Origin: Methanococcus voltae PS
GTDB lineage: Archaea > AGJL01 > Methanococci > Methanococcales > Methanococcaceae
Reading direction: 5' to 3'
Assembly (NCBI RefSeq): GCF_024807035.1
Contig: NZ_JANUCQ010000002.1
Location: forward strand, 186,001 to 250,000
Length of the DNA: 64,000 nt
Shown: positions 58,037 to 60,378 of the stretch, piece after piece
Position numbering within the stretch: the stretch's first letter is position 1
How the letters are laid out: every line of letters begins with the position of its first letter
Position numbers and translations under genes: made by a program
Notes under the pieces: generated by a model
What the model saw: the letters and a program-made list of their open reading frames with translations, nothing else
Database searches by the model: none
Told to the model about the DNA's origin: nothing

Positions 58037-58366
58037 ATGCAGGAATACAAAAAAGATGTGAAAAAATTATACAGGTCTGTTGACGATAAAATGTTAGAGG
58101 GTGTTTGCGGAGGAATCGGAGAGTATTTCAACGTTGACCCAACACTTGTACGTATTTTGTACGTAGCATTAACTGTATTCACAGGCTTTATATTAGGAAT
58201 TGTAACGTACATCGTTTTAGCTATAATAATACCTAAAAATGAATCTAAATTTAAGAACGAATACAAATTCAAAAATGAGCCAATAACTACATCTTTTGAG
58301 CCTAAAAAAGATGAAAACGAAGAAAATACGGAAAATACTGAAAACGAAGAAAATAAAAACAATTAA
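58037..58366 (+). CDS. PspC-domain membrane protein
   Basis: A 109-residue protein. Residues 10-68 are a PspC domain (KKLYRSVDDKMLEGVCGGIG, then EYFNVDPTLVRILYVAL), with one membrane helix (VFTGFILGIVTYIVLAIIIP). The last 40 residues are a Lys/Glu/Asn-rich tail. In bacteria PspC takes part in the membrane-stress response; the archaeal role is not known. ATG follows CGAGGGTGAAATT. It stands alone. Confidence 0.85.
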   Translation: MQEYKKDVKKLYRSVDDKMLEGVCGGIGEYFNVDPTLVRILYVALTVFTGFILGIVTYIVLAIIIPKNESKFKNEYKFKNEPITTSFEPKKDENEENTENTENEENKNN

Positions 58367-58652: not shown

Positions 58653-60269
58653 ATGAATAAAAAAGAGGAAACTTCAAAAATAGCATATTTTAGCATGGAA
58701 TTTGCAATCGACCAGGCTTTAAAAACTTATGCCGGAGGTTTGGGATTTTTGGCTGGCTCGTTATTTAAAGCAGCTAATAGAGCAAATTATCCGATGGTTG
58801 GAGTATCAATTCTTTGGAGTTACGGCTACTACGACCAAATGCGAGATATTGAAGGTCGTATGGTTATTGGTAAAACACGTAAATTCCACGACTATTTGGT
58901 AGATATTGATGTAAAAGTACCCCTAGAAATTAATAGGTCTAAACTATGGGTAAAAGCCTATTTACTACCTGCAGGAATATTTAGCACTCGTCCAATTTAT
59001 TATTTAACCACGGATATTCCAGAAAACGATTATCTTTCACGTACAATATCATACAACCTATATGATAGCAATAATCTTACACATATTGCTCAGGAAATGG
59101 TATTAGGTATAGCAGGATACGAAGTACTTAAAAAATGTGAAAATATAGACGTTTACCATTTAAATGAGGCTCAAGCTATTCCCTTGGCTTTTAGAATGAT
59201 GGAAGATAAAGGATTGGACTATGTAAAAAATCACCTTGTATTTACCACCCATACCCCGATACCTGCAGGAAATGAAATACAAGATATTAACATATTAAAC
59301 AATATGGGATTCTTTGGTAGTACGGATTTAAAAACAGCTGAGAACTTTGGTGGAAATCCTTTTAATCTGACAGTTGCTGCTTTAAAAATGTCTAAAAAAG
59401 CAAATGCAGTTTCAAAATTACATCAGCAAACCACCGAGGAAATGTGGAATTGGGTCCCTAAAAGATGTGAAATAACATATGTTACAAATGCTCAAGATGT
59501 TAATTCTTGGCAAGATGTGGAACTTAAACGGTGCGCTGAAGAAGGAGACCTTGAAAATCTACGTAAAAGAAAATTACACCTTAAAAAACAACTATATCAA
59601 GTAGTTGCTGACCAGTGCGGACGATTATTTGATGAGGAAAAACTTACCGTAGTTTGGGCAAGACGTTTTGCAGAATACAAAAGACCGTATTTCCCACTAC
59701 ATGATGAGGAAAAACTTAGAGAACTTATAAATTCTGATAAATTACAGCTTATATGGGCGGGAAAACCACACCCTGCAGATTTTAACGCACAAGTAACATT
59801 TAATTGGATAATTTCAAAGTCTCGTGAAATTAAAAACACTGCCGTTTTGACAGGTTACGAATTGCATCTTAGCAAGCTTTTAAAATTGGGTTCCGATATT
59901 TGGTTAAATACGCCCAAAAGACCAAATGAAGCTTCGGGTACTTCCGGAATGACTGCTTCAATGAATGGTTCTATACATATGAGTACACTTGACGGTTGGC
60001 ATGTTGAATGGTTCAACGAATATCCCGACCTTAGCTTTACAATAGGCGATGGAGAAAACCTCAATGAAGATTATGAAGCCGATGATATGTATAAATTAAT
60101 TTGGAAAGTAATAGATATGTACGATACCGATAAATGGTGGAAATTGGTTCAAGATAACATTTTAACTTCTGTGGATTTCTTTAACGCAGATAGAATGCTT
60201 AAAGAATACTCCAAAAGAGTTTATAACGCAGTCGATAAAAAATACGAAATTATAGATAATGACAAATAA
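58653..60269 (+). CDS. Glucan phosphorylase-like (GT35) enzyme lacking the PLP lysine
   Basis: A 538-residue protein of the short glycogen-phosphorylase type found in archaea and Thermotoga. Recognised by YFSMEFAIDQALKTYAGGLG, VYHLNEAQAIPLAFR, VFTTHTPIPAGNE, VVWARRFAEYKRP (phosphate-binding Arg/Lys) and IWAGKPHPAD. In PLP-dependent members the block NEASGTSGMK contains the Lys that binds pyridoxal phosphate. Here it reads NEASGTSGMT, with Thr434 (ACT at 59952-59954) in its place, and the usual AGH of the earlier motif is AGN. The rest of the site looks intact, and nothing suggests a frameshift. It may be a phosphorylase that lost PLP, or a different glucan-processing enzyme. ATG follows GGGTGTAGGA. 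Confidence 0.8.
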   Translation: MNKKEETSKIAYFSMEFAIDQALKTYAGGLGFLAGSLFKAANRANYPMVGVSILWSYGYYDQMRDIEGRMVIGKTRKFHDYLVDIDVKVPLEINRSKLWVKAYLLPAGIFSTRPIYYLTTDIPENDYLSRTISYNLYDSNNLTHIAQEMVLGIAGYEVLKKCENIDVYHLNEAQAIPLAFRMMEDKGLDYVKNHLVFTTHTPIPAGNEIQDINILNNMGFFGSTDLKTAENFGGNPFNLTVAALKMSKKANAVSKLHQQTTEEMWNWVPKRCEITYVTNAQDVNSWQDVELKRCAEEGDLENLRKRKLHLKKQLYQVVADQCGRLFDEEKLTVVWARRFAEYKRPYFPLHDEEKLRELINSDKLQLIWAGKPHPADFNAQVTFNWIISKSREIKNTAVLTGYELHLSKLLKLGSDIWLNTPKRPNEASGTSGMTASMNGSIHMSTLDGWHVEWFNEYPDLSFTIGDGENLNEDYEADDMYKLIWKVIDMYDTDKWWKLVQDNILTSVDFFNADRMLKEYSKRVYNAVDKKYEIIDNDK

Positions 60270-60280
60270 TAATTAATAAT

Positions 60281-60346
60281 AAAATAAATACTAAATAATA
60301 GTAAAATAAATACTAAATAATAGTAAAATAAATACTAAATAATAGT
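60281..60346. repeat. Three perfect 22-bp tandem repeats
   Basis: Three exact copies of a 22-bp unit (containing AAATACTAAATAATAGT) lie just after the glucan phosphorylase-like gene, between convergent genes. Likely slippage product; possible copy-number polymorphism. Confidence 0.85.
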
Positions 60347-60378
60347 AAATAATAATTTAAAAGAAATTAAGTTTTTAA

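What the first reader, a model, noticed from the sequence alone, without database searches (positions are those of the whole stretch)
59922..59969. Glucan phosphorylase-like enzyme with threonine in place of the PLP lysine
The motif region reads NEASGTSGMTASMNG. In PLP-dependent phosphorylases the position after GM (or NM) is the lysine that forms the Schiff base with pyridoxal phosphate. Codon 434 is ACT, which needs two base changes from a lysine codon, so a sequencing slip is unlikely. The AGH of the substrate motif is also AGN. The phosphate-binding Arg/Lys remain. This points to a PLP-free member of GT35, with a changed reaction.
Basis: partly seen in the sequence, partly recalled or inferred. 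Interest (0 to 1): 0.62.

Follow-up and report, generated by a model that had tools for sequence, protein, structure and literature searches.

The report
Glucan phosphorylase relatives lacking cofactor lysine
A relative of glycogen phosphorylase in this methanogen lacks the lysine that holds the vitamin-B6 cofactor, and the same loss marks a whole old branch of the family in archaea and several groups of bacteria, so these enzymes must either work without the cofactor or hold it in an unknown way.

Summary
The ORF 58653..60269 (+), 538 aa, is a full-length relative of the short alpha-glucan phosphorylases (TIGR02094). Thr434 (ACT, 59952..59954) aligns with E. coli MalP Lys646, the published PLP lysine. 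It is not a slip or a local quirk. All 30 Methanococcota orthologues have Thr or Ser, under strong purifying selection (dN/dS 0.03-0.06). They form one supported clade with proteins of 39-50% identity in Bacteroidota, Verrucomicrobiota, Campylobacterota, Melainabacteria and Halopseudomonas. Of 72 clade members sampled without regard to this residue, none has Lys (56 Thr, 15 Ser, 1 Ala). K-type sisters have Lys. The sugar and phosphate residues (His, Asn, Arg, Lys, Glu) and the predicted phosphorylase fold remain. In Campylobacterota the gene sits in glycogen operons, near pgm and pgi. In most hosts checked it is the only GT35-type gene. Best reading: an uncharacterised subfamily of glycogen-pathway enzymes, probably still phosphorolytic, without a Schiff-base PLP at the usual lysine. 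PLP-free catalysis, non-covalent PLP, PLP on another lysine (Lys411 is invariant and clade-specific) and a nucleotide-sugar donor are not separated by sequence. A changed reaction is not shown. The AGN motif is not evidence.

The parts
58653..60269 (+). CDS, 538 aa, T-type (PLP-lysine-less) member of the alpha-glucan phosphorylase superfamily
   Evidence: TIGR02094 360 bits against a cut-off of 191.7; PF00343 61 bits against 27; predicted GT-B phosphorylase fold
59922..59969 (+). PNEASGTSGMTASMNG, cofactor-lysine motif region
59952..59954 (+). Thr434 (ACT) in place of the PLP lysine (E. coli MalP K646)
   Evidence: alignment; K646 as PLP lysine from PMC11046441
59928..59930 (+). Glu426, equivalent of GP Glu672 / MalP E638
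   Evidence: invariant in T, K and classical sets
59940..59942 (+). Thr430, equivalent of GP Thr676 / MalP T642 (cofactor-phosphate contact)
   Evidence: invariant
59661..59681 (+). RRFAEYK (R337, R338, K343): phosphate-site residues equivalent to MalP K534, R535, K540
   Evidence: K534 and K540 named as PLP-phosphate ligands in PMC11046441
58734..58745 (+). GGLG glycine loop (residues 28-31)
   Evidence: invariant in the T clade
59250..59252 (+). His200, equivalent of GP His377 / MalP H346
   Evidence: invariant
59487..59492 (+). Asn279-Ala280: Asn484 equivalent kept, the following Gly changed to Ala in the clade
   Evidence: T clade Ala 94-100%, K-type and classical Gly 100%
59655..59657 (+). 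Trp335, clade-specific (Phe in K-type, Gln in classical), two residues before R337
59859..59885 (+). Helix after Tyr402 carrying the clade-specific residues E403, S407 and K411 on one face; K411 is a candidate relocated cofactor lysine
   Evidence: E403, S407, K411 each 100% in the T clade, absent in the K-type set; helix 404-413 in the model

Best explanation
The gene encodes a working glycogen-pathway enzyme of an uncharacterised subfamily of the alpha-glucan phosphorylase (GT35) superfamily. An ancestor exchanged the PLP-holding lysine for Thr/Ser, and this was kept through inheritance and, by inference, horizontal transfer. It most likely still moves a terminal glucose of an alpha-1,4-glucan to and from phosphate at the conserved glycine-loop/Arg/Lys/Glu site, giving glucose-1-phosphate for phosphoglucomutase and phosphoglucose isomerase. 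It would do so without PLP as a Schiff base at the canonical position, either with no PLP (as GT4 trehalose phosphorylases do) or with a PLP or other anion bound without a covalent bond in the retained phosphate pocket. Shown: loss of the lysine in the whole clade, selection on the gene, retained catalytic residues and predicted fold, pathway context. Inferred: the phosphorolytic reaction and how the site works without that lysine.
For: Thr434 is on MalP K646. No Lys in 72 clade members sampled by homology and read at this site: Methanococcota 30, Campylobacterota 11, Verrucomicrobiota 6, Bacteroidota 25. One clade, SH-aLRT 100, stem 0.85 changes per column. dN/dS 0.03-0.06 in four pairs. Invariant H200, N279, R338, K343, E426, T430. 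AlphaFold pLDDT 90, pTM 0.89; all 50 best solved matches listed are phosphorylases, the best Segatella copri glycogen phosphorylase, TMq 0.87-0.88. Campylobacterota operons: K-type, pgm, pgi, T-type, NTP-transferase, GH57 and GH57, galT, glgA, ROK kinase, glgA, glgB, pgm, T-type. All 29 T-type genomes checked with PF00343 have no other GT35 gene except one with two T-types. In Methanococcota the gene is mostly present or absent together with GT5 glycogen synthase (both 25, T only 5, GT5 only 1, neither 5; Fisher p 0.003, not corrected for ancestry). A review assigns M. maripaludis glycogen breakdown to a glycogen phosphorylase, MMP1220 (PMC4902934).
Against: No biochemical assay of any clade member was found. 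Six Campylobacterota genomes carry both a K-type and a T-type, in two of them in one operon, so the T-type may do a second job. The window's own genome and its two nearest relatives lack a GT5 synthase but keep the T-type. Several positions around the cofactor site changed together with the lysine (G to A 280, F to W 335, N/D to G 401, E403, S407, K411), which could mean a changed ligand.
Confidence: 0.5

Rival explanations
1. The subfamily uses a nucleotide sugar: the vacated PLP site takes the nucleotide part of UDP- or ADP-glucose, and the enzyme is a glucan synthase or another retaining glucosyltransferase.
For: GT35 belongs to the same GT-B group as nucleotide-sugar glycogen synthases, and GT3 clusters with GT35 (PMC11046441 section 51). 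From memory, not read here: pyridoxal-diphospho-glucose in phosphorylase can transfer its glucose to glycogen. The anion-binding residues stay. The pocket-side residues changed together. Both types occur in one operon in some Campylobacterota. No GT5 synthase in the window's genome; no GT3 and no full-length GT5 in two T-type genomes that have glgB (G063, G084).
Against: Most T-type genomes checked already have a GT5 or GT3 synthase and no other phosphorylase. All 50 listed structural matches are phosphorylases. No profile similarity to the Methanococcus GT5.
Confidence: 0.2
2. PLP is still bound covalently, on a relocated lysine such as Lys411 or Lys24.
For: K411 is 100% Lys in the clade and never Lys in the K-type set; K24 is 93% Lys. 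E403, S407 and K411 lie on one face of the helix that follows Tyr402. Tyr402, Trp286, R337 and T430 around the usual cofactor are kept.
Against: K411 is near the far end of that helix, about two turns from its active-site end (reasoned from the sequence and predicted helix; no coordinates were available). PLP lysine relocation in this superfamily was not found in the papers searched.
Confidence: 0.12
3. Catalytically dead paralogue that binds glucan and regulates or scaffolds the pathway.
For: Loss of a residue considered essential; six Campylobacterota genomes have an intact K-type as well.
Against: All other catalytic residues invariant over several phyla; very low dN/dS; sole GT35 gene in most hosts.
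Confidence: 0.1
4. Sequencing slip or decaying copy of a normal PLP phosphorylase.
For: None found.
Against: Same state in 30/30 independent genomes of the phylum and in bacteria; two base changes needed; purifying selection.
Confidence: 0.01

Closest known systems
K-type alpha-glucan family phosphorylases (TIGR02094), e.g. Segatella copri glycogen phosphorylase, PDB 9l6i / 20yr
   Same: Family profile, GT-B phosphorylase fold, GGLG loop, RRFxxYKR phosphate site, EASGTSG motif, Tyr402 and Glu426
   Different: Those have Lys after GTSG(M/E/Q); the T-type has Thr/Ser and clade-specific changes A280, W335, G401, E403, S407, K411, S36, W55; the window protein also lacks about 100 residues at the N-terminus and the C-terminal part of the 852-aa protein
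Classical PLP glucan phosphorylases (PF00343 / TIGR02093; E. coli MalP and GlgP, rabbit muscle GP)
   Same: His377, Asn484, Arg569, Lys574, Glu672 and Thr676 equivalents and the fold
   Different: No PLP lysine; 15-18% identity over the structural match; much shorter
GT4 trehalose phosphorylases
   Same: Would work alike if the T-type is a PLP-free retaining GT-B phosphorylase; PMC8950772 lists GT4 beside GT35 as retaining phosphorylases with a front-side mechanism (absence of PLP in GT4 is from memory)
   Different: Different family and substrate; no membership claimed
GT5 glycogen synthase (Methanococcus MMP1294 type)
   Same: GT-B fold, same pathway, co-occurs in the phylum
   Different: No detectable profile similarity

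Membership tests
alpha-glucan family phosphorylase TIGR02094 (GT35 superfamily) | Score above the curated cut-off | tested here: met
   360.3 bits against 191.7
alpha-glucan family phosphorylase TIGR02094 (GT35 superfamily) | GT-B phosphorylase fold | tested here: met
   Predicted model pLDDT 90; best solved match 20yr/9l6i TMq 0.87-0.88; all 50 listed matches are phosphorylases
alpha-glucan family phosphorylase TIGR02094 (GT35 superfamily) | Sugar and phosphate site residues (His377, Asn484, Arg569, Lys574, Glu672 equivalents) | tested here: met
   H200, N279, R338, K343, E426 invariant
PLP-dependent glucan phosphorylase (EC 2.4.1.1) | Lysine forming the Schiff base with PLP | tested here: not met
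   T434 on MalP K646; 0 Lys in 72 clade members sampled by homology
PLP-dependent glucan phosphorylase (EC 2.4.1.1) | Bound PLP | not testable with these tools
   Phosphate-contact residues kept (R337, T430), ring-side residues changed; needs the protein
PLP-dependent glucan phosphorylase (EC 2.4.1.1) | Phosphorolysis of alpha-1,4-glucan to glucose-1-phosphate | not testable with these tools
   Context only: pgm/pgi neighbours; sole GT35 gene; literature assignment of MMP1220
GT5 glycogen synthase | Sequence/profile similarity | tested here: not met
   hhalign probability 0.1% against the Methanococcus GT5

The most novel reading that the evidence does not exclude
A natural, multi-phylum lineage of GT35 enzymes has dispensed with PLP, and the vacated cofactor site now takes another group (a nucleotide diphosphate sugar, pyrophosphate or a second phosphate), so that a phosphorylase has become a cofactor-free phosphorylase or a nucleotide-sugar glucosyltransferase.
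Probability: 0.35. Interest if true: 0.85.

Novelty: new variant of a known kind. Interest (0 to 1): 0.62.

Why it matters
PLP in glycogen phosphorylase is unusual: only its phosphate is thought to act, as an acid/base group, and why the enzyme keeps the whole cofactor has long been asked. A natural clade that lost the anchoring lysine but kept the rest of the active site lets this be tested directly. It also affects annotation: these genes score as alpha-glucan phosphorylase (TIGR02094), and a review of M. maripaludis metabolism assumes a standard glycogen phosphorylase. In many Bacteroidota, Akkermansia relatives and Methanococcales the T-type is the only candidate for the phosphorylase step.

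Tried and rejected
Sequencing error or decay: rejected. A lysine at a neighbouring position of the motif: none in GTSGMTASMNG; conserved lysines elsewhere were listed, and K411 is kept as a rival. AGN as a sign of changed substrate: rejected as not diagnostic. Simple replacement of the K-type in all hosts: not general, because six Campylobacterota genomes hold both. A conserved operon in Bacteroidota: not found; neighbours differ between genera. A solved T-type structure: a profile search of solved chains listed only known glucan phosphorylases. Papers on a PLP-lysine-less GT35 branch: none found in the open-access library; the key M. maripaludis paper (Yu et al. 1994) is not held.

Full report
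What is there. The ORF 58653..60269 (+), 538 aa, scores 360 bits on TIGR02094 (alpha-glucan family phosphorylase, cut-off 191.7) and 61 bits on PF00343. The window genome holds a single such gene. Its motif region is PNEASGTSGMTASMNG, with Thr434 = ACT at 59952..59954. In an alignment of 161 proteins that includes E. coli MalP, T434 falls on MalP residue 646. A 2024 review names K646 as the PLP lysine of E. coli MalP, and K534 and K540 as PLP-phosphate ligands (PMC11046441). The equivalents of these two, R337 and K343, are kept.

Not a local accident. All 30 Methanococcota genomes that carry the gene (36 searched) have Thr (29) or Ser (1) at this place. The five more distant archaeal relatives found in the same search have Lys. 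Every one lies in a homologue of this protein, the longer ones 39-50% identical to it. They come from Bacteroidota, Verrucomicrobiota, Campylobacterota, Melainabacteria and two Halopseudomonas, with 3 records labelled Alphaproteobacteria. That scan selects for the trait, so I also sampled by homology alone. Campylobacterota gave 11 members of the same clade (4 Thr, 6 Ser, 1 Ala). Verrucomicrobiota gave 6 (all Ser). Bacteroidota gave 25 that could be read (23 Thr, 2 Ser), while the only two Lys among the hits belong to 34%-identical outsiders. With Methanococcota this makes 72 members and no Lys. A tree built without the trait column joins the archaeal and bacterial T-types in one clade (SH-aLRT 100, stem 0.85), apart from all K-types and classical enzymes (quick method, and L031 and L032 are long branches). 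So the change most simply happened once, and the patchy phylum distribution suggests horizontal spread (inference).

Under selection and foldable. dN/dS is 0.03-0.06 for four pairs of close relatives. AlphaFold2 on 34 clade members gives pLDDT 90 and pTM 0.89. The best solved matches are the K-type Segatella copri glycogen phosphorylase structures (TMq 0.87-0.88), and all 50 listed matches are phosphorylases. A profile search of solved chains lists only known glucan phosphorylases.

The active site. Kept in all T-types: GGLG loop, H200 (GP His377), N279 (Asn484), W286, R338 (Arg569), K343 (Lys574), E426 (Glu672), T430 (Thr676), with Y402 (Tyr648) and R337 nearly invariant (rabbit GP numbering from memory, MalP numbering from the alignment). 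Lost: the lysine. Changed together with it, near-fixed in the T clade and absent or rare in K-types: A280 (Gly), W335 (Phe; Gln in classical), G401 (Asn/Asp), E403, S407, K411, S36, W55. E403, S407 and K411 are spaced by four along helix 404-413, so they share a face of the helix that starts at the cofactor-side Tyr402 (the geometry is inference).

Pathway. In two Campylobacterota genomes the order is K-type phosphorylase, phosphoglucomutase, phosphoglucose isomerase, T-type, nucleotidyltransferase/phosphomutase, GH57, GH57 (L317, L318). In Arcobacter and Sulfuricurvum relatives the T-type follows or sits near GH57, galT-like, GlgA, ROK sugar kinase, second GlgA, GlgB and phosphoglucomutase genes (L254, L255, L322; the pgm/pgi calls in L254 and L322 rest on sequence resemblance to L317). 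In the 29 T-type genomes checked with PF00343, the T-type is the only GT35 homologue (one genome has two T-types). Most T-type hosts have a GT5 or GT3 glycogen synthase, and most bacterial ones a branching enzyme. In Methanococcota the gene and the GT5 synthase are mostly present or absent together (both 25, T only 5, GT5 only 1, neither 5; Fisher p 0.003, not corrected for ancestry). Three of the five T-only genomes are the window's own and its two nearest relatives. The M. maripaludis literature assigns glycogen breakdown to a 'glycogen phosphorylase (MMP1220)' (PMC4902934).

How it may work. The parsimonious reading is a glycogen-pathway phosphorylase whose phosphate subsite is intact and whose cofactor is not held at the canonical lysine. 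Phosphorolysis by a retaining GT-B enzyme without PLP has a precedent in GT4 trehalose phosphorylases (GT4 listed beside GT35 in PMC8950772; absence of PLP from memory). Alternatives that the sequence does not exclude: PLP bound without a covalent bond; PLP on K411; a nucleotide sugar in the pocket; or a dead paralogue.

Verdict. Observation confirmed. Interpretation partly supported: lysine-less yes, clade-wide, PLP-free plausible, changed reaction unproven. As a group it is a new variant of a known kind, and it should not be filed as a PLP-dependent glucan phosphorylase, because that defining feature was tested and not met.

Noticed in passing
G000 C2:405000-415000 (L249): The window's genome and its two nearest relatives lack the GT5 glycogen synthase that sits beside the GT4 gene in the other genomes of the genus; a GH57, a GT4, PGI and ADP-phosphofructokinase remain there.
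   Followed up: partly
L317, L318 (Campylobacterota): K-type phosphorylase, pgm, pgi and T-type lie in one tight operon, so the two types work side by side in some bacteria.
   Followed up: partly
L260: One T-type has Ala at the site (GTSGMAAS), so a hydroxyl group is not strictly required there.
   Followed up: no
Bacteroidota genomes: About 270-aa open frames matching only the GT5 N-terminal domain occur in most Bacteroidota checked, with or without a glucan phosphorylase.
   Followed up: no
window 60274..60350: About three head-to-tail copies of a roughly 22-base A/T-rich unit just after the stop codon of the gene (seen by eye).
   Followed up: no
window 58037..58366: Small PspC-like membrane protein upstream of the gene; below the curated NCBIfam cut-off.
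   Followed up: partly
G199:C1:456696-458225 (L270, L278, L285, L286): A broken phosphorylase relative, split over several short frames, in a Campylobacterota genome.
   Followed up: no
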